From the IMG/VR virus record IMGVR_UViG_3300043427_003220, positions 62,001-126,000 of that record: 64,000 bases of DNA. One strand, given 5' to 3'. The notes under the pieces are model-generated. The model made no database searches, had not been told where the DNA came from, and was given only the letters and a program-made list of their open reading frames with translations. Shown piece by piece: positions 37,492-47,482 of the stretch. Position 1 is the first letter of the stretch. Every line of letters starts with the position of its first letter. Made by a program: the position numbers and the translations under genes. The stretch is from a virus.

Positions 37492-37698
37492 CTTTTGTCC
37501 TACAAGTTACATCTACTGTAATTCACAGAAGAAAAAATAAACTCATAAAAATAACTCAAGACTTTCCAAAATCTGACAATATGTCTCTTATAAAGACATA
37601 TTTATTAGCGACGACTGCGACCGTTACGGTGGCCTTGAAAATTATTGATTTTGCCGTCAATAATAGTAAAATGCCTTAAGTCATGGAGGTTTAAGGCT

Positions 37699-40600
37699 GT
37701 GCTCAAATCATTCAAACAATTAACAAATGAATACGAAAGACTTAAAAAGTCAGAAGAATTCAAAGACTTAACTTCTGACGACTTACTAAATAAAGATATT
37801 ATTCAAAGAATTCAGAAAAAGAGAGTCAATTCTAGCCCAAGCGAAAAAGAACAATTAGACTCTTATATTAAAAACGCTATGCAAAAAGCTCTTCTTAATA
37901 CCTACCATGACCCTAAGTACCCAGAAAAGCTAGACATGGCATGGAGTAAATCTTCACTTGCTGACAATGCTCAGAGGGAGCTTGAAACATCTCCCCGCAA
38001 CTGGCTGACAAAAACGTCAAGTGGCGAATACGATGTTGACACAAATAAACTTAAAGAGTCTCCTCTTTCTTTCTCTGCACTAAAACATATCAAAGACATG
38101 AGTCCTGAAAATGCCAAGAAGATTATGGAAAAACTTAAAGACTCTCCAGAGCTATCTGAGTCGCCGGCCAGAACAGCTAAAGCTGGTGCTATTAGCGAAA
38201 TTGCTAAGTTTGCACCACTAGAGGCGCTATTCGACAAAGACTACACGCCATGGGGTGCTTATGCAGCTATTAAAGAAAAAACAAAAGACTTTACAGAACA
38301 TCCAATATCATTAGACAAACTAAAAGAACTTCACGGTAAGCGTTATTATGGCGACGATACGTCTTATGTTGGTAAAGTGCTGAGTAATTATGTTCTTTCT
38401 CATCCAGACACTCCTAAAGAAGACCTTTTAAGCCATATTCAAAATAACTTTTCTCCATCTTCAGACGTATTAACTCACAAATCTCTAAGCCCCGAAGATA
38501 TTAAGCACGCTGTACGTTTAAGGCTTGCAAACCAAAAAGGCGTTCTTGATAACTTAGAAGGTTTGAATACAAAAGAAAAAGTCGATAAAGGACTAGCAGT
38601 TCTTGAAGGGCTGCATGAATATGCAAAGACTAACCCCGGTATTCATCAAGATATGATTGACTACGGTCTTCACAAATTAGCTTTGAACAATGTTTCAGAA
38701 GAAGTAACAGAGCATGCTTTAAATAAGCTATTGGAAAGATATAATAATAAAAACTATTTATCTAACGACCCTAAAGCTGCTGCCGCCATTAGGGGCAGCT
38801 TGGCCCACAGTATTAATAGTGTAATTCATCCAGACAGCCCTGCTTCGCAAAAAGTTTTGATTGAAATTGCCAAGGGAACTCATTCAATTAAAGACAAAAC
38901 AGGAAAAATCAAAGAAAACGATTTGTTAGATAACATCTTAAATACACGTCGTTTTAGGACAGACGGAAGTCAAAATTTTGTAAACGAAGTAAGACGACAT
39001 GTTATTGAGTCTGGTCACGCGCCATCTATTCAAAGTATTTACAAGCAATGGGGTTCGGCTTGGGGAGTTGAAAGCCAAAAAGCAGAACTAGAACATTTAA
39101 CAAATAAGTTTGACGACAAGACACTCGCCAAAATTGTTCCTCATATGGATGCTGCTTTTTTAAGAAAACATGTATTTTCTAATCAAGAACTTTCTCAAAA
39201 GATTCTCCCACATCTTTCTTCGGCAGCAAAAGCCAAACTTGAAAAAGACGGCGCTCTTGGTGGTATTTCTAAAGAAGACTCTCCTTTGAGTTTTTCTAGT
39301 AATACAGAGATGTTAAGAAAACTAAGAGACGTTGCCGAAGCAAATGGCGGCTCTATTAGTGCAAAACAATTAGGGCAGCATGGATTAAATGAAAATTCTT
39401 TAAAAATTACACACTTAAAAGACGCAAAAGGAAACTATACAAAAGAAGCTATCCAAAAGCACATCGACTCAATGCCCAAGCATAATTACGACTACTCTCA
39501 TACGAGTTGGAAGGGCGCTCAAGTACACTCAAACGAAAAACAGTATGTGTTTCAGCTTAACCACAATGAAGACCTCCTTAATGAAATGAAGAATGCCGGT
39601 GTCTATGACACTTTTGCAAAGACACATGAGCTTTCTTTTAATAGTGACCATCCAGTCAAAGACAATACGTTAGGATGGGTTAGGTATACTAAGGGCAAAG
39701 ACGGGCACATCCACATAGACGAAATTCAAAGTGACTTGGGACGCAGTCTGCATGGGTCTATAAAAGAATACTTAGAAAAACAACCAGAATCTCCTAAAAA
39801 GAAAAAACTAGAAGAGCTGTTTTCAAAAGAAAAAATAGACAAAATGAACGACATTTTGTTTAAAGGACAGCACCCATCAAAGATAATTCATGAAGGGTTT
39901 CTGCAGTTTTTAAGAAACAACGGTAATGTTGGTAAAGATATACATATCTGGCAGGCAATGCCCAAGGCCAAGTTGGCAGGGCAAGATACTGTGGGCAATT
40001 TTAGTCTTAGAGGCTTCTCAGATAACATTGACTTTCATAAAAAAGTTGAAGCAAATAAACCGATTGAAGATTTTGATGCTGGAGAAATTGAACAGGCAGC
40101 AAGAGCTTTTATAGGGCCTGAAGAAACAATTAAGATATACGATAAACATGCGGTCTATAGTCCGGGTACAGCAACACAAGGGCCTGAAGAGATTGGTTTT
40201 AATTTAGAAAACTTCAAGAATGACGTTGTCAATCATCCTCTATACAAACTTGCAATAAGCCACATCAAAGCACATGCCACTAATGACGATTTGGCTTCAG
40301 CCAGAGAACCATTAGAGGAAAATGCAAGTTTTGACGATAAGGTTTCTTATCCCTACACCATCAACGAACTTCCTGTACACATGAAGATTGGCTATCAAGA
40401 GCTACCGCCTAAGCTAGACTATACTCCAGACAGCTATGGCAAAATACAGACACAAAAAACCAAGGATTTAAAAGACCAACCAACGTGGAAGACCAACTTA
40501 AGAAAGTCTCTCAAGGCACTCACTGCTGAATACGAGAGACTTAAAAAGGCTACGGACCCGTATGCTTATATAAATAATTTTGGATATTCTGACGAGTCCG

Positions 40601-41667
40601 ACGACCTATACAATGACATAAGCGATGCTATTGACCATCACAATTTAGTTTCAAATAGACGTGGCGAAATGTATGGAGAAATTTCAGAAGATTACGATAC
40701 TAGCATTAAAAAACCCAGCGAACTTTTACCCGCCCATGCGTTGCAGCAAGAGGTCGGGTGGCTGTTAAAACATCCCAAAGAAGAATGGGCGGCCAAAATG
40801 GCTGAAGCGTTTAAACAAACTGGACGAGATTTTTCTCATATCATAGATAAAAAGTCTAAAAAAGAACTATCTCCGCCTATTACAATTAATGGCGAGCTGG
40901 TTGACGGGTTTGGTAGAGTACATTTAGCGCATGCTTTAGGGGAAAACGTTCCGGTTTTTAATTACAAAAGAAAAAGACTACGAAAGTCTTTTGGCTCGCT
41001 CACTGCTGAATACGAGAGACTTACAAAAGCCGACGCTCCGGTAGTCAAACTTAATCCAGAGCACGGCAGAATGATCGCCGACGCTTACCACAACATGAAG
41101 CACGACCCAAGTCACCCAGAAGTTAAGGCTTCTTACGATGCTCTTATAAATGAGACTAAGCAGCAGTATAAAGATTTGTTGGCGTCTGGACTAAAAATTT
41201 CTAAGATACAGCCTAATATGGATAATCCATATCCGACTTCTAAACACCTACATGCAGACATGACAAACAATAATCACATGTGGTACTATCCAACATCGTT
41301 GGGGTTTGGTTCAGAGGATTCTATTCCTCACGATCACCCAATGTTGCGGGAAACAGAATTTAAAGACCCAGAAGGTAAGCCAATGCTAGCTAACGACGTT
41401 TTCCGGGTAGTACATGACAGCGTCCATAATAAATTAAAAAATGGATTTGGGCCGAAGGGCGAACACGAATCATTCTTGGAACACAAAAAGACCTACAGCC
41501 CCTTGGCTCAAAAAGCATTGGCTACAGAGACGATGGGTCAAAATAATTATGTTAATTTTTCAAGTCAAATTGGCCACTTAAACAGAGCTAAACCGGGTTC
41601 GGCTTATGCGCCGCAAAAGGCAGGATTGATGCCAGACGAAATCATCAATAAGGATTGGCATTCATGA
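37699..41667 (+). CDS. Giant multidomain polyvalent protein P1
   Basis: 1322 aa. GTG 37699 is chosen because GGAGG precedes it and the product then begins with the peptide MLKSFKQLTNEYERLKK, which recurs at 935 and 1095. Domains: a long helical part (about 20-560); a polyvalent-protein segment with WVRYTKGKDGHIHIDEIQSD (EIQSD at 675-679, as in large polyvalent proteins of mobile elements); tag 2; a segment with DGFGRVHLAHALGENVPVF (about 1072-1090), which looks like the ParB/sulfiredoxin-type D-G-x-x-R motif; tag 3; and a C-terminal domain (1110-1322) conserved in many phage proteins, with HMWYYPTSLGFGS, MLANDVFRVVHDSVH and TETMGQNNYVNF. It is probably virion-carried. Processing at the tags is a hypothesis. 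Confidence 0.72.
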   Translation: MLKSFKQLTNEYERLKKSEEFKDLTSDDLLNKDIIQRIQKKRVNSSPSEKEQLDSYIKNAMQKALLNTYHDPKYPEKLDMAWSKSSLADNAQRELETSPRNWLTKTSSGEYDVDTNKLKESPLSFSALKHIKDMSPENAKKIMEKLKDSPELSESPARTAKAGAISEIAKFAPLEALFDKDYTPWGAYAAIKEKTKDFTEHPISLDKLKELHGKRYYGDDTSYVGKVLSNYVLSHPDTPKEDLLSHIQNNFSPSSDVLTHKSLSPEDIKHAVRLRLANQKGVLDNLEGLNTKEKVDKGLAVLEGLHEYAKTNPGIHQDMIDYGLHKLALNNVSEEVTEHALNKLLERYNNKNYLSNDPKAAAAIRGSLAHSINSVIHPDSPASQKVLIEIAKGTHSIKDKTGKIKENDLLDNILNTRRFRTDGSQNFVNEVRRHVIESGHAPSIQSIYKQWGSAWGVESQKAELEHLTNKFDDKTLAKIVPHMDAAFLRKHVFSNQELSQKILPHLSSAAKAKLEKDGALGGISKEDSPLSFSSNTEMLRKLRDVAEANGGSISAKQLGQHGLNENSLKITHLKDAKGNYTKEAIQKHIDSMPKHNYDYSHTSWKGAQVHSNEKQYVFQLNHNEDLLNEMKNAGVYDTFAKTHELSFNSDHPVKDNTLGWVRYTKGKDGHIHIDEIQSDLGRSLHGSIKEYLEKQPESPKKKKLEELFSKEKIDKMNDILFKGQHPSKIIHEGFLQFLRNNGNVGKDIHIWQAMPKAKLAGQDTVGNFSLRGFSDNIDFHKKVEANKPIEDFDAGEIEQAARAFIGPEETIKIYDKHAVYSPGTATQGPEEIGFNLENFKNDVVNHPLYKLAISHIKAHATNDDLASAREPLEENASFDDKVSYPYTINELPVHMKIGYQELPPKLDYTPDSYGKIQTQKTKDLKDQPTWKTNLRKSLKALTAEYERLKKATDPYAYINNFGYSDESDDLYNDISDAIDHHNLVSNRRGEMYGEISEDYDTSIKKPSELLPAHALQQEVGWLLKHPKEEWAAKMAEAFKQTGRDFSHIIDKKSKKELSPPITINGELVDGFGRVHLAHALGENVPVFNYKRKRLRKSFGSLTAEYERLTKADAPVVKLNPEHGRMIADAYHNMKHDPSHPEVKASYDALINETKQQYKDLLASGLKISKIQPNMDNPYPTSKHLHADMTNNNHMWYYPTSLGFGSEDSIPHDHPMLRETEFKDPEGKPMLANDVFRVVHDSVHNKLKNGFGPKGEHESFLEHKKTYSPLAQKALATETMGQNNYVNFSSQIGHLNRAKPGSAYAPQKAGLMPDEIINKDWHS
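37702..37749 (+). repeat. KSLKALTAEYERL-type tag, copy 1
   Basis: Encodes LKSFKQLTNEYERLKK at the extreme N-terminus of P1. An N-terminal place is where T4-like phages carry capsid-targeting peptides (of the form K-x-F-x-x-F-x-x-E). Confidence 0.65.
40501..40548 (+). repeat. KSLKALTAEYERL-type tag, copy 2
   Basis: Encodes RKSLKALTAEYERLKK inside P1 between the polyvalent segment and the ParB-like segment. It shares 25 identical nt (40519-40543) with copy 3. Confidence 0.75.
40981..41028 (+). repeat. KSLKALTAEYERL-type tag, copy 3
   Basis: Encodes RKSFGSLTAEYERLTK at the border of the C-terminal P1 domain. The 25-nt identity with copy 2 (40999-41023) points to duplication, not convergence. 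Confidence 0.75.
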
Positions 41668-44090
41668 ATTTAAGACACTTTCATCGTAGCAACACCGAAG
41701 AATACCAACGTGAGCTGCAAGAGTTGTTTAATCATAAACTAGCATTGGCAAGGTCTTTAAAAGCACTGACCGCTGAGCACGAAGAACTACAAAAAGTCAT
41801 CTTTAGAAACGGCACGCACTACCCTGAATCAACTGACCGTGTAGGCACTCCTCATCCAGAGTTGCGTCATCTTATCGTACATCAAGCAAGAAACGGTAAG
41901 CATGTTTGGTCGTACCATCCAGAACTCAGTAGAATTCACGACAGAAACTTGATACAACTTATGGGCGGTCAAAAGATTGCCGGCAGAAACAATGTGCAAC
42001 TCCCAAATAGACTAGCGTCTTTACAAAAACCGACGGTTTCAGCAGTTAGAAGTTTTGCTAATGATTTGATAAACAATCCAGACAGACACGTCATGTCTGC
42101 CAACACAGACCCAACCAAGCCAAAAGATCATTCAGAAATGCGCGTAAGGCATCTTATTAGTGCATTGACTGGCTCTGATGGATATGAGATAAAAGACCAC
42201 CCAGAAGGGTTTGAAGTTTATGCGCCTCGTCACTCCAAGTCTCAAAAGGCAGACGACATTGCAACTCGTTGGATTTACAACGCTGCTAAAAAAGACTTAA
42301 GGTCTGAAAGAATTTATCCGAAAAGTCCAAATGGAGGCAGTTATGGAACAAAATTTGGAAAATCAATTAGACCCAGACCTTCCAGCAATCTTGGAAGAAG
42401 ACAAACTGATGCAAGAAAGTCTGCAGCTCAAAGACCCCGGTCTTCTAAAGACATTGTGGGTAAGACTGAAGTTGCTTCTAAGCTTTTGAAAGCCGAAGAC
42501 GAAGCGGGCATGACCGCATATCCATTAAAAGATGGATATTCGCTGCACCACGAAACTTCATCTAATGGCTATGACATCTGGAGTATTGGCCATAATGGCC
42601 AAAGAGCAGGTTCATTTATGATTTGTACAGATGAGGGACGCAGGGGCCGCCCGTTTGTCAGTTGGGCAGGAGTAGACAAGCCTCACCGTGGCAAAGGGAT
42701 TGGAGCTGCAGTTTATAAGACTTTGGCTGTACACTATGGTGGTTTAGACAGCGACAGAAACTCAACGTCCGTTGACGCTATCAAGGCGTGGCGTCGTGCT
42801 GGCGGTAGGCAGCTCAAAATTAAAACGGCTTTTGGTGAACCTAGATACACTTTGGAAGGAGACAAGAAAAGACCCCCTATTGTGTGGAATGAAGATTTAG
42901 ACAAAGCACAGGAATTAAATAAAAAATCGCCAAAGCCTTTAAAGGGGCTTCATGCTGAGGCGGCAAAGTACAATAATTTTAATGATTTTAAAAAAGCATT
43001 TTTAAACGAAATAAAACATGGAACATACTGGCATGTAACTGATAACCCTAATTTTCAAATAGACCCAAAAACTGGGCCACGAGATATGACTTCCCTTGGG
43101 ATGGGCAAAAAAGATACTGGCGCGTTAATGATGACCTCGCATCTTGAACATTGGGTTGATTTTTATGGCAAAAAAAATCGACCTTATGCTGCTCTTATAG
43201 ATATGTCCGATGTACACCCAGATGACTACAAACAGGTAAATCGGGGTTTTGGTAATGAATTTTATGTAAAAAATTCGCAAAAAGCTAAAACTATAAAAGT
43301 AATGCCGGTTGATGAAGCCATTAAATACAATCAAAAACAACGCAAAAAAATGCCTCAAAATGAAGAAGAGCTAAGAAATCTTTATGAAAGTGTTCATAAA
43401 CAAAACTCATCTAAGTCTCAAAATTTAGAGAAAACTCGCGGAACTTTGACATTTCCTAAAGTTCTTCCTAAAGATACTCGTCCAGAAGAAAACGTAAAGC
43501 AAATCCCTAAAGACGAAAAGGCTCACCCGATGCACGGCGGGCTATATGAAGTCAAACCTGCTCAAGAGCAGTTCTTACACACAATGGTTCAGGGCATCCC
43601 TGCTGAAGAACAGTACCGAGCCATCACAAGCATTAAAAACCAAATACAGCAAGGAACCATGGGCATCTACCATCCCAAGCAAGAGAAGGCGTTTGCTTTG
43701 GATTCAGATTATTATGTAAAGGCTCATGAAGCCATTCATGCAATGGTTGATAAGGTGGCAAAGCGCCTCAAGGCTCCCTCAACGGATGAAGTTTATCATC
43801 GGATGAACACCCTTATCCACCAAGACGATGTGCCTGTCTTAAAGCACATGCTCATGACCTTTGGTTACCCTGTAAGCAGCCATCATAGGGAACTCATTCC
43901 GTTCATTCACTCAATTTTGCATGACAGAGAAATGAGAAATCATTATATTGAACACCTAAAGCTTTATCGCAATAATTTCGATATAGAGAAGCGTAGAAAA
44001 GACATTCAGCGTTTAGGCAGAACTTGGAATGCTATTCTACAGACAGGCAAGAGAGTGTCTCAGCTATCAGATTTACCTAAAGAGGTGTGA
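41664..44090 (+). CDS. Giant multidomain polyvalent protein P2 (GNAT, ART-like, HExxH)
   Basis: 808 aa. ATG 41664 overlaps the P1 stop (ATGA). Order: N-terminal tag copy 4 (ARSLKALTAEHEELQK, residue 30); an uncharacterised part with HLIVHQARNGKHVWSYHP; an Arg/Ser/Lys-rich linker (230-270); a GNAT acetyltransferase-like domain (about 290-390) with the acetyl-CoA loop PHRGKGIGAAVYK (R342); tag-like copy 5 (KSPKPLKGLHAEAAKYN); a domain starting YWHVTDNPNF (456), an ART-like pattern; and a C-terminal part with HEAIH at 688-692, a zincin-type zinc motif. Three different enzyme-like domains in one phage protein suggest an injected effector set. Activities are predicted from motifs only. Confidence 0.7.
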   Translation: MNLRHFHRSNTEEYQRELQELFNHKLALARSLKALTAEHEELQKVIFRNGTHYPESTDRVGTPHPELRHLIVHQARNGKHVWSYHPELSRIHDRNLIQLMGGQKIAGRNNVQLPNRLASLQKPTVSAVRSFANDLINNPDRHVMSANTDPTKPKDHSEMRVRHLISALTGSDGYEIKDHPEGFEVYAPRHSKSQKADDIATRWIYNAAKKDLRSERIYPKSPNGGSYGTKFGKSIRPRPSSNLGRRQTDARKSAAQRPRSSKDIVGKTEVASKLLKAEDEAGMTAYPLKDGYSLHHETSSNGYDIWSIGHNGQRAGSFMICTDEGRRGRPFVSWAGVDKPHRGKGIGAAVYKTLAVHYGGLDSDRNSTSVDAIKAWRRAGGRQLKIKTAFGEPRYTLEGDKKRPPIVWNEDLDKAQELNKKSPKPLKGLHAEAAKYNNFNDFKKAFLNEIKHGTYWHVTDNPNFQIDPKTGPRDMTSLGMGKKDTGALMMTSHLEHWVDFYGKKNRPYAALIDMSDVHPDDYKQVNRGFGNEFYVKNSQKAKTIKVMPVDEAIKYNQKQRKKMPQNEEELRNLYESVHKQNSSKSQNLEKTRGTLTFPKVLPKDTRPEENVKQIPKDEKAHPMHGGLYEVKPAQEQFLHTMVQGIPAEEQYRAITSIKNQIQQGTMGIYHPKQEKAFALDSDYYVKAHEAIHAMVDKVAKRLKAPSTDEVYHRMNTLIHQDDVPVLKHMLMTFGYPVSSHHRELIPFIHSILHDREMRNHYIEHLKLYRNNFDIEKRRKDIQRLGRTWNAILQTGKRVSQLSDLPKEV
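41751..41795 (+). repeat. KSLKALTAEYERL-type tag, copy 4
   Basis: Encodes RSLKALTAEHEELQK near the N-terminus of P2, so the tag is shared between two genes. Confidence 0.7.
42924..42974 (+). repeat. Possible diverged tag, copy 5
   Basis: Encodes KSPKPLKGLHAEAAKYN between the GNAT-like and ART-like parts of P2. The K-S-x-K-x-L-x-x-L-x-A-E frame is kept but the rest has diverged. Confidence 0.4.
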
Positions 44091-44092
44091 TT

Positions 44093-44494
44093 GTGAAGAG
44101 TTTTTTAAGATGTCTAACATATAAAAATGATTATAGTTTTTGTATAGAAGACGGCGTCTTAAAAGACTCTTTTCTTAATATTAAGATAAACCCCAATCCT
44201 TCTATGCTCTTTGCCGAGATGCTTACTGAGTGTTTGTGGAATGTCTGTAGGGTTGATTTTGACTTTATGATAACTTCTTTGACTCCTCCTACAAATGAAA
44301 ATATAGTTAATGATTTTAATAACATAACAAAAACTTGTTATTTAAGACACACAGTAGGCGACCAAGAAACCTACTATCACCTTAAAGACAACTCTCTCTA
44401 TTTGTTTGATAAGCCAAACGAGCCAGTTAAAATAACAGAGCTATTACTGATTGACGGCGATTGGACGATTGTTAAAGAGCAGGACTGCAGATGA
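44093..44494 (+). CDS. Hypothetical protein between P2 and the ART-NUDIX gene
   Basis: 133 aa. GTG 44093 is preferred to GTG 44087 since AGAGG then has normal spacing; both are in frame. The protein is alpha/beta with five cysteines, and a final half rich in aromatic strands (YYHLKDNSLYLFDKPNEP, LLLIDGDWTIVKEQD). The stop overlaps the next start (ATGA). No family is recognised. Its coupling on both sides implies that it belongs with the multidomain proteins, perhaps as an immunity or chaperone partner. Confidence 0.5.
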   Translation: MKSFLRCLTYKNDYSFCIEDGVLKDSFLNIKINPNPSMLFAEMLTECLWNVCRVDFDFMITSLTPPTNENIVNDFNNITKTCYLRHTVGDQETYYHLKDNSLYLFDKPNEPVKITELLLIDGDWTIVKEQDCR

Positions 44495-46104
44495 AAAAAC
44501 TTCTTGAAATTATTGACGAAGTTGCAAAAGAGCATGGGCTTGAATGGTACAAGCCACATAGCGCCGAACCTATCAAAAAATCCTCCGACCCTCTTGCCCC
44601 TCTTATTCAGCAAGCCAAAGCAAATCTTGCTGCAGTTCATAAAGTCGCTTCTCAAGAGCCACGCCCAATGTTGTTTGGCGGTAAGAACGGCTCTGGCCGT
44701 CATGGTTTTGTGTCTTTAGACCCATCCAAACCCAACCAATGGCGTGTCACTCACTTTGTTAAGGGCAAGCCTTCAGGGCACACAGAGGCAGATAGCTTTA
44801 GCGATGCAATTGAAAAGGCTCACAGCTATGGCTACAATGTATCCAAAGAATTATCTGAAGAAGATATGAGTAAGACTGAAGACTTAGAAAAAAACACAAA
44901 TAAAATATCGCCAAGCTTTGCACACATTAAAAATATTGATAATTTTGATGACTTTACTCAATCCGTAAAAAAATTGCCAGAAACAACCAAAAAAGAAATA
45001 ATAAATTATCAAGAAGAGTATAATAAAAATCCCCCACTTTCTTCAAATGAAGAACTTTACTATCACGGAACTCCTTTTTTTAATGAAATTAAAGAAGGTG
45101 GATTTAAGAATACAGAAGGAGGTAGGGCCGGATTCTTAGGTTTTGTGCATAAGGTGCAAAATTTAGGAAACTATTTCAGCAATGACAAAAGATTAGCGCA
45201 CTATTATGGCTCTGACCGAGCGTCTCATCATACTAACAATTCTAATAATTATGAAGTATTATCGGTCAAAGTAAATAAAGGAAACTGCTTAGACCTGACA
45301 GAACCAAAAGTTAAGATACCAACAGCGATAAAAAAATTAGGTCTTAAAAAACTACAGCAATATGATGGGCTGTTACGCTCTCATTTTATTAGAGGTAAAG
45401 ACATGGTTGTTTTACTAGATGACCCTGATTTTGTTAAAAGTTTAACCAATCATGGATACGATAGCGTCAAATTTAAAGAAGACAAAGGTATTTTAAAAAA
45501 TGCTAATAGTTCTGGACATACTTTATTCGTAATGAACCCTAATAAATTGAAAGTTCATAAACCTATCCGTACCTTAAGAGACATGTTTAATCATTTTAAA
45601 GAGTTGTTTGAAGAAGATATGGAACAGGACAAAATGAAAAAATCCGAAGACTTCTCTCGTGTATCTTCTGTTGTTGTTGCTACCGACGACAAGATGTTGA
45701 TGCTCCAGCGCCGCGACAATAACAAGTGGACATTCCCCGGTGGTCATTTAAATGACACAGAAACTCACCTTGAGGGAGCTGTTAGAGAGCTATGGGAAGA
45801 GGCTGGCATCAGAGCTAACCCAGATGAAATGATTCTTCTTGGAAACAAGAAGACTTTTCAAAATAAAGACATTCACGTTTATCTTTATAAAGTAAACTCA
45901 GAAGTCAAACCATCAGCCGCCAATGACCCAGACAAAGAAGCCCAGAAGTTTGCATGGTTGCCGCATGTACTGCCAGAAGATATTAAAGAAAACCTCTATA
46001 TCCCCGTTGGAGACAACTCTTCATTGTCGTTGTTTTCGGTATGGTTGTTGAGACAAAAGACGAATAAACTCAAAAAGTTGGTTGAGGCTAAGAAATCAGT
46101 TTAA
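44491..46104 (+). CDS. ADP-ribosyltransferase-like / NUDIX hydrolase fusion protein
   Basis: 537 aa. N-terminus MKKLLEIIDEVAKEHGLEWY, then a small domain with HGFVSLDPSKPNQWRVTHF (about 65-125). At about 185-370 there is an ART-like domain: YYHGTPFFNEIKEGG (H192), NYFSNDKRLAHYYG (Y228), a GYDSVKF turn and a final LFVMNPNKLKV, the pattern of H-Y-type phage ART-like domains. At about 395-525 there is a NUDIX domain with a complete box at 418-440: G, E424, R432-E-L-W-E-E437-x-G-I. NUDIX enzymes cut NDP-X compounds including ADP-ribose and NAD-type caps. Fusion of an ADP-ribose-transferring and an ADP-ribose-hydrolysing module suggests a linked activity on one target; that is inference. The 3' end overlaps the converging gene by 9 bp. 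Confidence 0.8.
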   Translation: MKKLLEIIDEVAKEHGLEWYKPHSAEPIKKSSDPLAPLIQQAKANLAAVHKVASQEPRPMLFGGKNGSGRHGFVSLDPSKPNQWRVTHFVKGKPSGHTEADSFSDAIEKAHSYGYNVSKELSEEDMSKTEDLEKNTNKISPSFAHIKNIDNFDDFTQSVKKLPETTKKEIINYQEEYNKNPPLSSNEELYYHGTPFFNEIKEGGFKNTEGGRAGFLGFVHKVQNLGNYFSNDKRLAHYYGSDRASHHTNNSNNYEVLSVKVNKGNCLDLTEPKVKIPTAIKKLGLKKLQQYDGLLRSHFIRGKDMVVLLDDPDFVKSLTNHGYDSVKFKEDKGILKNANSSGHTLFVMNPNKLKVHKPIRTLRDMFNHFKELFEEDMEQDKMKKSEDFSRVSSVVVATDDKMLMLQRRDNNKWTFPGGHLNDTETHLEGAVRELWEEAGIRANPDEMILLGNKKTFQNKDIHVYLYKVNSEVKPSAANDPDKEAQKFAWLPHVLPEDIKENLYIPVGDNSSLSLFSVWLLRQKTNKLKKLVEAKKSV

Positions 46105-46305
46105 GTCGTCTTTATCGTTTGGCCTATTTTCAATCGCTCTAATAAGCCTAACAGCAAAATGCTTATGAAAATCGTGGTTTGTTTGATTGGCGGGATTTTT
46201 AGCTAACGCATCTAGATAGGCAGTCAAAATATCCTTAGCGACTTTGTTGTCATCTTGGATTCTTTTGATAAGAGACTCGTCAATTTTATAAGTTGTTTGA
46301 TTCAT
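46096..46305 (-). CDS. Small helical protein
   Basis: 69 aa (MNQTTYKIDESLIKRIQDDNKVAKDI...). Charged and mainly helical, with no motif recognised. The start is adjacent to the end of the lipoprotein gene, with which it forms the end of the minus-strand operon. Its stop region overlaps the end of the ART-NUDIX gene on the other strand. Confidence 0.5.
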   Translation of the reverse strand: MNQTTYKIDESLIKRIQDDNKVAKDILTAYLDALAKNPANQTNHDFHKHFAVRLIRAIENRPNDKDDLN

Positions 46306-46925
46306 TTATTTTTCTTTAGTTGATTGTCTTGAATATGATAATCGGCTGCGCGATATTTAACAATATCCTTTCCGTAGATATACCACTCTCCATTATTTTT
46401 TTGAATATTTTCAAGCAACTCTGCGTGAGTCATCCCCATTCTGTTTGCCGCTCGCTTTAGCAAATAAGTCTCTTGAACAAACCCTTCTAGGCCAGCCAAA
46501 AATGCCTCGGTGACTGGAATGGTTCCGTTTCCAAAAGAAATAGAATGGTGGTGAGTCATAAGCAATGTTCTGTCTAGATATACTCTTACAGTGCAGGCTT
46601 CGTAAATTTCAAACGCTGCGCTCATTGCTGTATCAGCAACGCAAATGGTTTTAAACCCACTCATAGTATTCATAATACTTTCGGCAGCATCAACCATTCC
46701 ACCGTTGCTGTTGATATAGATAAGCAAGGTGTCTCCGGCTTTCATTTTTTCTGTGCGGCCCTTAAGGTTGTCGTCTACATACCAGTTAATTTCGCCGCTC
46801 ATATTAAACATGGCTTGTTTATTGGTTTGCAACTCAGCCAAGACTTCTTGAGGTATCTCTGGATTGGGTTTAGATTTTCCACAAGCGGCTAAAATCATTA
46901 AAAATATCAAAAAAAGTTTTTTCAT
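46302..46925 (-). CDS. Lipoprotein with ClpP/SppA-type protease fold
   Basis: 207 aa. ATG 46925 is chosen because MKKLFLIFLMILAACGKS is a textbook lipoprotein signal (lipobox LAAC, Cys15). The body follows the Clp-protease fold: LLIYINSNGGMVDAAESIMNTM (oxyanion region), then CVADTAMSAAFEIYEAC with a Ser (S102) in the nucleophile position, and LLMTHHHSISF with the His (H125 or H126). The Asp position is Glu180 (NGEWYIYG). It should be anchored in the cell envelope. A close relative is encoded at 55162. The role could be cleavage of envelope proteins or protection against other phages; this is inference. Confidence 0.72.
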   Translation of the reverse strand: MKKLFLIFLMILAACGKSKPNPEIPQEVLAELQTNKQAMFNMSGEINWYVDDNLKGRTEKMKAGDTLLIYINSNGGMVDAAESIMNTMSGFKTICVADTAMSAAFEIYEACTVRVYLDRTLLMTHHHSISFGNGTIPVTEAFLAGLEGFVQETYLLKRAANRMGMTHAELLENIQKNNGEWYIYGKDIVKYRAADYHIQDNQLKKNK

Positions 46926-47482
46926 TTTTTGTATCTCAATGGGTAGAAGACAGAGTGAACTATTTGAATACACTGCTCTTTTGTTAGTATTTTATTATCC
47001 ATCAAAGTAAATACGGCATTTCTTGCTGCAATTGATGGGGTCCATGATAAACACATATGAACAACATTCAGCAGCGACTTTTCTTCGTCTGAAAGTAGTT
47101 CTCTATACAATTCCATGCTCTTTTCTAACTGTTCTCTTATAGACGCAATTTGACCGTCGAGTTCACGGCGTTCTTTGATATTTTGCTTTAAGACTCTTTC
47201 TATTCTTTTTGCAACCAACAAATCAACACTGAGTCTTTTTTCTACTTTTTTCAAACAAATCAACAATATACGTCTAGCTGCGTAATTGTCTAAAAAATTA
47301 CCTGACAATACAATGTCTATTTTGTCTAAAGAATCGACATTTGGCAACTTAAGAAAATCAACTATTGTGCCGCTCCATGTTGAGTCCAGTTGTTTCCAGA
47401 TTCGAGGGCCTGATTCAGAAATATAATACACATCGTATCTATTAATTTTTCTAGATGTGTCTAGTAGTTGACTCTCTTTCAT
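46922..47482 (-). CDS. Hypothetical helical protein
   Basis: 186 aa from ATG 47482. The longer frame would begin with TTG inside the previous gene. The stop overlaps the lipoprotein start (ATGA), so the two are translationally coupled. The middle is a predicted coiled coil (RIERVLKQNIKERRELDGQIASIREQLEKSMELYRELL). No domain family is recognised. Tight coupling suggests that it works with the lipoprotein. Confidence 0.5.
   Translation of the reverse strand: MKESQLLDTSRKINRYDVYYISESGPRIWKQLDSTWSGTIVDFLKLPNVDSLDKIDIVLSGNFLDNYAARRILLICLKKVEKRLSVDLLVAKRIERVLKQNIKERRELDGQIASIREQLEKSMELYRELLSDEEKSLLNVVHMCLSWTPSIAARNAVFTLMDNKILTKEQCIQIVHSVFYPLRYKK

What the first reader, a model, noticed from the sequence alone, without database searches (positions are those of the whole stretch)
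44491..46104. ART-like domain fused to a NUDIX hydrolase
One 537-aa protein holds an H-Y type ART-like domain (H192, Y228) and an intact NUDIX box (418-440). In T4 the ADP-ribosylating enzymes and the NUDIX enzyme NudE are separate proteins. A fusion would couple a transferase that uses NAD with a hydrolase for ADP-ribose or NAD-type caps. It might set or reverse a modification on host RNA or protein, or remove NAD-derived signals used by host defences.
Basis: partly seen in the sequence, partly recalled or inferred. Interest (0 to 1): 0.65.

Follow-up and report, generated by a model that had tools for sequence, protein, structure and literature searches.

The report
Phage effector polyprotein: ART plus NUDIX
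A phage gene encodes two enzymes in one protein, an ADP-ribosyltransferase and a NUDIX hydrolase, but close relatives show that these are interchangeable cargo modules joined at what look like capsid-protease cutting sites, so the virus probably packages them and cuts them apart instead of using them as one coupled machine.

Summary
The 537-aa ORF at 44491-46104 has a complete NUDIX box (418-440; Pfam NUDIX E=1.9e-16) and a divergent ART-PolyVal domain (H192, Y228, plus D324). An AlphaFold model of residues 181-366 (pLDDT 72) best matches AcrIF11, then PARP catalytic domains. The proposed functional coupling is not supported. In two sister phages with the same gene order, NUDIX (71-77% identical) is a separate gene. 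None of 80 ART-PolyVal viral loci has a NUDIX box. The protein belongs to a late cluster of multi-domain 'polyvalent' effector proteins. Its modules, and those of its relatives, begin and end at phi-x-K-[S/A/G], the form of the HK97 capsid-protease site (FNK103|S104). This motif is enriched in this phage's head and polyvalent proteins (17 strict sites against 3.4 expected) and not elsewhere (7 against 14.5). It marks 31 of 120 homology boundaries against 10.3 expected. It accompanies a head-maturation protease family found in 9 of 11 relatives, and is not enriched in other phages' polyvalent proteins. Best reading: a capsid-packaged polyprotein predicted to be cut at K30|S31 and K384|S385, which would free ART and NUDIX as separate injected effectors. 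Cleavage and both activities are inferred, not shown.

The parts
44491..46104 (+). 537-aa precursor P0001: leader | module | ART | NUDIX
44491..44580 (+). N-terminal leader, residues 1-30 (MKKLLEIIDEVAKEHGLEWYKPHSAEPIKK), candidate capsid-targeting propeptide; residues 1-22 are 59% identical to the leaders of the L011 and L045 polyvalents
44572..44583 (+). predicted protease site I28-K-K|S31; homology with L011 and L045 restarts exactly here
44581..44892 (+). module 31-134 of unknown function ('SSD..LIQQAKA'), 63-64% identical to internal modules of L011 and L045
45031..45588 (+). ART-PolyVal-like ADP-ribosyltransferase domain, residues 181-366; H192 (45064-45066), Y228 (45172-45174), D324 (45460-45462)
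45634..45645 (+). predicted protease site M382-K-K384|S385 at the ART/NUDIX junction; L011 has LKK|AED and L045 LKK|SED at the same place
45643..46101 (+). NUDIX hydrolase module, residues 385-537; box 418-440 at 45742-45810
41655..44090 (+). neighbouring 811-aa polyvalent protein; GNAT module 277-423 (42483-42923) starts at LLK|AED; C-terminal HEAIH (zincin-like) module starts near LEK|T; split into separate ORFs in L045
37645..41667 (+). neighbouring 1340-aa polyvalent-type protein with three copies of a 15-aa spacer S-[LF]-x-x-L-T-x-E-Y-E-R-L-[KT]-K, each flanked by phi-x-K-[SA] sites
44087..44494 (+). 135-aa conserved protein of unknown function between the two polyvalent ORFs (53% identical to an L045 protein in the same position)

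Best explanation
P0001 is a virion-packaged polyvalent effector precursor. A leader of about 30 aa would target it to the prohead core. The phage's HK97-type head-maturation protease (L006:15419-16201) would then cut at K30|S31 and K384|S385, and perhaps near K128/K134. This would release an H-Y-D ADP-ribosyltransferase and a NUDIX hydrolase as separate proteins, which are ejected with the DNA and act on host targets early in infection. Fusing modules at protease sites lets the phage gain, lose or swap effectors as cassettes and have them packaged by one leader. Shown here by computation: domain identities, ART fold prediction, motif enrichment, module boundaries at motif sites, and protease-family presence. 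Inferred: packaging, cleavage, injection, enzymatic activity and targets.
For: Domains and fold. Late location: tail-fibre and virion structural genes upstream and a phage lysozyme (E=7.5e-42) downstream. Sister phages: homology blocks start at IKK|SSD, MKK|SED and LLK|AED, and the sisters L011 and L045 differ from each other by whole modules bounded by the same motif. 31 of 120 distinct homology boundaries lie at phi.K[SAG] (null 10.3, SD 2.9, maximum 20 in 3,000), and none of seven control motifs behaves the same. Strict motif phi.K[SA][DE]: 17 against 3.4 expected in head and polyvalent proteins, 7 against 14.5 in the rest, with E and R controls flat. The lysine of the motif at the capsid-protein N-terminus is invariant in four divergent capsid proteins. 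HK97 is cut at K103/S104 (PMC10275583), its sequence there is FNK|SL, and mature PDB chains begin at residue 104. The protease candidate matches a head-maturation protease family (E=9.4e-7), found in 9 of 11 relatives. In 80 other phage ART polyvalent ORFs the strict motif is not enriched (55 against 50), and only 3 of 45 of those records carry the protease family.
Against: There is no proteomic or biochemical evidence of packaging or cleavage. P0001 alone is not significantly enriched in sites. The protease candidate has no Pfam match and only a weak profile match to HK97 gp4 (probability 8%, E=0.0043). Motif and boundary tests partly used sequences in which the motif was first noticed; L045 is the held-out case. 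The three ART phages that do carry the protease show only a non-significant rise in the motif. The ART is below Pfam's cut-off, and its closest relative (L011) has N in place of D324.
Confidence: 0.72

Rival explanations
1. A true bifunctional ART-NUDIX enzyme: the NUDIX half degrades ADP-ribose or NAD-type products made by, or competing with, the ART half.
For: The two domains are in one ORF here and adjacent in Myxococcus phage Mx1. NAD-using domains fused to Nudix, Macro or NADAR domains in phage proteins, and a KptA-Nudix fusion in a mimivirus, have been reported (PMC7824862, PMC9503650).
Against: NUDIX is a separate gene in both sister phages. 0 of 80 ART loci have NUDIX. NUDIX is otherwise paired with GNAT, kinase, ParB-like, LPD1 or portal domains. 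A predicted protease site lies at the junction.
Confidence: 0.12
2. The phi-x-K-[SAG] motif is only a flexible-linker composition or a recombination joint, not a protease site; the protein stays whole.
For: Linkers are often rich in K, S and E, and module shuffling can leave shared linkers. No cleavage data exist.
Against: phi.R, phi.E, [DENQ].K and phi.K-[hydrophobic] controls do not mark boundaries. The motif is head-specific within the genome, includes an invariant capsid-protein lysine, and matches the HK97 site. Polyvalent proteins of phages mostly lacking this protease are not enriched.
Confidence: 0.2
3. The ART domain is a degenerate binding module and only NUDIX is catalytic.
For: The ART is below the Pfam cut-off, and D324 aligns with N in L011.
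Against: H192, Y228 and D324 and the surrounding motifs are all present in P0001. The predicted fold matches AcrIF11, a proven ART, and PARP catalytic domains.
Confidence: 0.12

Closest known systems
Polyvalent proteins of phages (Iyer et al. 2017, PMC5512222)
   Same: Several unrelated effector domains (ART of the H-Y-D type, GNAT, zincin-like, ParB-like, LPD1) in one late-gene polypeptide predicted to be packaged and injected
   Different: Iyer et al. propose processing by zincin or assemblin-like peptidase domains carried in the polyvalent proteins; here the module joints carry the site of a separate HK97-type head-maturation protease, and modules toggle between fused and separate genes. 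In that paper NUDIX is mentioned only once, linked with InPase and GNAT (word search)
T4 internal proteins and Alt (capsid-targeting propeptide cut by gp21; PMC9026906)
   Same: A short N-terminal leader removed by the prohead protease; packaged effectors, one an ART, that differ between related phages
   Different: T4 uses single-effector proteins and a different protease and motif; Alt is an R-S-E ART (PMC5512222), not H-Y-D; here several modules are chained
phiKZ/SPN3US-type proteolytic head maturation (PMC10052503)
   Same: Many head and ejection proteins cut by one phage protease at a short motif
   Different: The SPN3US motif is A-x-E; apart from the protease itself the known cuts remove N-terminal propeptides and do not separate effector domains
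AcrIF11 (PDB 6KYF), an ART anti-CRISPR
   Same: Best solved-structure match of the ART model (probability 0.99, E=2.7e-3)
   Different: Low sequence identity (15%); AcrIF11 is a small protein of 14.5 kDa; no evidence that Cas8f is the target here
T4 NudE-type phage NUDIX hydrolases
   Same: Most of the annotated phage hits to the NUDIX domain are NudE-type genes of T4-like phages (30-39% over 75-120 aa)
   Different: T4 NudE is a separate gene; the substrate is undetermined here

Membership tests
Polyvalent protein | Two or more functionally unrelated effector domains in one phage polypeptide | tested here: met
   ART plus NUDIX; relatives carry GNAT, ART, kinase, ParB-like and LPD1
Polyvalent protein | Encoded among late virion genes | tested here: met
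   Virion structural and tail-fibre genes upstream, phage lysozyme downstream
Polyvalent protein | Packaged in the virion and injected | not testable with these tools
   Needs virion proteomics
ART-PolyVal (Pfam PF18760) | Score over the curated cut-off (31.2 bits) | tested here: not met
   19.3 bits, E=0.002; a wider profile gives E=3.1e-5. Described here as ART-PolyVal-like, not filed as a Pfam member
ART-PolyVal (Pfam PF18760) | H (strand 1), Y (strand 2), D (strand 5) active site | tested here: met
   H192, Y228, D324
ART-PolyVal (Pfam PF18760) | ART fold | tested here: met
   AlphaFold pLDDT 72, pTM 0.71; AcrIF11, tankyrase and PARP in PDB, 59 BFVD hits at E<=1e-3, many of them ART-PolyVal proteins
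NUDIX hydrolase | Complete GX5EX7REUXEEXGU box and score over cut-off | tested here: met
   Residues 418-440; 60.7 bits against cut-off 21.1
ADP-ribose pyrophosphatase subfamily of NUDIX | Pro about 16 residues after the box (rule recalled from memory) | tested here: not met
   Residue 456 is Phe; ADP-ribose as substrate is neither supported nor excluded
Substrate of an HK97-type head-maturation protease | Cleavage motif phi-x-K|[SAG] at propeptide and domain joints | tested here: met
   I28KK|S and M382KK|S at homology boundaries; boundary statistics
Substrate of an HK97-type head-maturation protease | The phage encodes such a protease | tested here: inconclusive
   P0006: PHROG head-maturation protease E=9.4e-7, GMS and His motifs, but no Pfam hit and only a weak profile match to HK97 gp4
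Substrate of an HK97-type head-maturation protease | Cleavage observed | not testable with these tools
   Needs mass spectrometry or co-expression

The most novel reading that the evidence does not exclude
A group of large phages builds its injected effectors as polyproteins whose module joints are capsid-maturation protease sites. The sites act both as cutting points and as cassette borders, so effectors such as ART, NUDIX, GNAT and kinase can be exchanged, fused or split between related phages without changing the final cleaved products.
Probability: 0.6. Interest if true: 0.75.

Novelty: new variant of a known kind. Interest (0 to 1): 0.6.

Why it matters
If right, a simple sequence rule (phi-x-K-[S/A/G] next to a head-maturation protease gene) would let one read off the individual effectors that many uncultured phages inject, explain why their giant proteins are such unstable mosaics, and show that apparent domain fusions in such phages need not mean functional coupling. 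It also gives a directly testable prediction in cultured phages (Mx1, SJC03).

Tried and rejected
A search for close full-length relatives of P0001 in viral contigs found none, and the ART alignment as a query also failed. The first AlphaFold run on three sequences was useless (pLDDT 35) and was replaced by a 28-sequence run. hhalign of the single ART against five ARTs was uninformative. A loose motif count per ORF was too weak alone, so the boundary and gene-set tests were used instead. Two ideas were rejected: that ART-NUDIX is a conserved functional pair (0 of 80 loci), and that phi-x-K-[SAG] is a general property of polyvalent proteins. Tunturi_5's 'MutT/NUDIX' annotation, reached through its ART, shows no NUDIX similarity to P0001. 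T4-like gp21 specificity (L/I-x-E) was not pursued, because phi.E[SAG] did not mark boundaries.

Full report
WHAT IS THERE. The window is bases 62001-126000 of a 162,747-bp IMG/VR virus record. The ORF at 44491-46104 is real, 537 aa. Its C-terminal part is a NUDIX domain (Pfam E=1.9e-16; PHROG NUDIX families down to 7.5e-21) with an intact box at 418-440. The REx.EE core is kept in all aligned relatives. Residues 191-354 match ART-PolyVal below the Pfam cut-off (E=0.002). A profile of 26 other phage ARTs, made without this protein, ranks it first among the genome's ORFs at E=3.1e-5; the best shuffled decoy is at 0.051. The 28-sequence alignment shows H192, Y228 and D324 in the family's conserved positions, matching the H-Y-D active site described for polyvalent ARTs (PMC5512222). 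AlphaFold on that alignment gives pLDDT 71.7 and pTM 0.71 for residues 181-366. Its best solved match is 6KYF, the anti-CRISPR ADP-ribosyltransferase AcrIF11, followed by tankyrase, PARP and ParT. Predicted viral structures give 59 matches at E<=1e-3, many of them named ART-PolyVal proteins.

IS IT A FUNCTIONAL FUSION? Two sister phages with the same gene order were found. In L011 (122 kb) and L045 (110 kb) the NUDIX module (77% and 71% identical) is a separate 221-aa gene with its own leader, following a 1046-aa or 886-aa polyvalent protein. The L011 polyvalent contains an ART-PolyVal over the Pfam cut-off. In L045 there is no ART between the two modules that flank it in L011. Of 80 viral loci with ART-PolyVal, none has a NUDIX box in the ORF or within the fetched flanks. 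Other relatives of this NUDIX sit next to GNATs, PI3/PI4-kinase-like domains, ParB-like and LPD1 domains, or at the C-terminus of portal-like proteins. Only Myxococcus phage Mx1 has ART directly followed by NUDIX, inside a 1479-aa protein with GNAT. The pairing is therefore not conserved, which argues against a set-and-reset device.

MODULE JOINTS. Pairwise homology between P0001 and the sister proteins starts exactly at IKK|SSD (residue 28) and MKK|SED (residue 382), and the GNAT of the upstream ORF starts at LLK|AED. The 22-residue leader of P0001 matches the leaders of both sister polyvalents and ends just before such a site. L011 and L045, 68-94% identical in shared modules, differ by whole modules inserted between ELVK|A or DLIK|G and LKK|SSD or IKK|SSD, and between ILQK or SLVK and SLTK|A or SLVK|A. 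Across 17 polyvalent proteins from several phages, 31 of 120 distinct homology boundaries lie within 3 residues of phi.K[SAG], against 10.3 expected (SD 2.9, maximum 20 in 3,000 randomisations). Seven control motifs gave no comparable signal; the nearest, phi.D[SAG], gave 8 against 3.8.

WHY A CAPSID PROTEASE. HK97's capsid protein is cut at K103/S104 (PMC10275583). Its sequence there is FNK|SL, and mature PDB chains start at residue 104. In this phage the strict motif phi.K[SA][DE] occurs 17 times in ten head and polyvalent proteins, against 3.4 expected. In the other 144 ORFs it occurs 7 times against 14.5 expected, and E and R controls are flat. The scaffold-like protein L009:169-879, partly picked out because of the motif, contributes 4 sites; without it the count is 13. 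Four capsid proteins, the other three only 19-23% identical to ours, share an invariant Lys near the N-terminus: MAK|S, LRK|A, VLK|A and LQK|A. A head-maturation protease candidate (L006:15419-16201; PHROG E=9.4e-7) has His and GMS motifs like HK97 gp4 and carries the motif in its own C-terminal part. Its family is found in 9 of 11 records searched, this one included; the two without a match are records of 25 and 67 kb. As a negative control, in 80 other phages' ART polyvalent ORFs the strict motif is at background (55 against 50) and not near the ART start (5 against 11), and only 3 of 45 of their records have the protease family. Those 3 show only a non-significant rise in the loose motif.

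BEST READING. P0001 is a packaged effector polyprotein: leader 1-30 (3.6 kDa), a product 31-384 (40.2 kDa, possibly cut again near 128/134) containing the ART, and NUDIX 385-537 (17.5 kDa). The leader recalls the T4 capsid-targeting propeptides (PMC9026906). After injection, the ART would modify a host target early, as T4 Alt does, or disarm a defence, as AcrIF11 does. NUDIX would hydrolyse an NDP-X compound. The substrate is open: the nearest annotated phage relatives are mostly T4-type NudE genes, the nearest solved ones include NudJ, and the ADP-ribose-pyrophosphatase proline (a rule recalled from memory) is absent (residue 456 is Phe). Packaging, cleavage and activities are inferred.

NOVELTY. 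Polyvalent proteins with ARTs, head-fused NUDIX domains and prohead-protease processing of internal proteins are all known (PMC5512222, PMC9503650, PMC9026906, PMC10052503). Four literature searches found no description of HK97-type K|S sites as the joints of polyvalent effector modules. The library holds only open-licence papers, so this is not proof of absence. I rate it a new variant of a known kind.

Noticed in passing
window 37645-41667 and 41655-44090: A 15-aa spacer S-[LF]-x-x-L-T-x-E-Y-E-R-L-[KT]-K recurs three times in one ORF and once, degenerate, in the next; most copies are flanked by phi-x-K-[SA] sites (L045 has SLKSLLAEYEKLKK|A). Possibly repeated internal capsid-targeting peptides.
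   Followed up: partly
window 46302-46973 (-): Lipoprotein-like protein with a ClpP-type domain (Pfam CLP_protease E=2.5e-6), kept in the same position in both sister phages; function unclear.
   Followed up: no
L009:169-8704 (genome 146-155 kb): Second polyvalent cluster upstream of the major capsid protein, with DUF6321, DUF5661 and an ART-like N-terminus (HFSTTSGL..., by eye) in an 858-aa protein, plus an acidic scaffold-like protein rich in phi-x-K-S sites.
   Followed up: partly
L045:4935-7595: Sister polyvalent carries a different ART-like module (WWHGTPSGRF..., by eye) in place of the second GNAT-like module of L011, a clean cassette swap.
   Followed up: partly
L037 (IMG/VR record of L013): The head-maturation protease ORF appears to be interrupted by an intein-like insert (CFPGDTAVSG...TPNHPIFT...).
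   Followed up: no
L010:4827-8915 (Tunturiibacter phage Tunturi_5): Annotated 'MutT/NUDIX hydrolase', but the protein shows no NUDIX similarity to P0001; it has two ART domains and, by eye, GNAT, 2H and zincin-like regions. Probable misannotation.
   Followed up: partly
L018 and L020-L023: The same NUDIX subfamily (NDPDKE signature) is fused to the C-terminus of portal-like proteins in other phages.
   Followed up: no
L003:5296-6507: A TnpB-like ORF sits between the portal and the MuF-like head gene of a human-gut phage (identified by eye).
   Followed up: no
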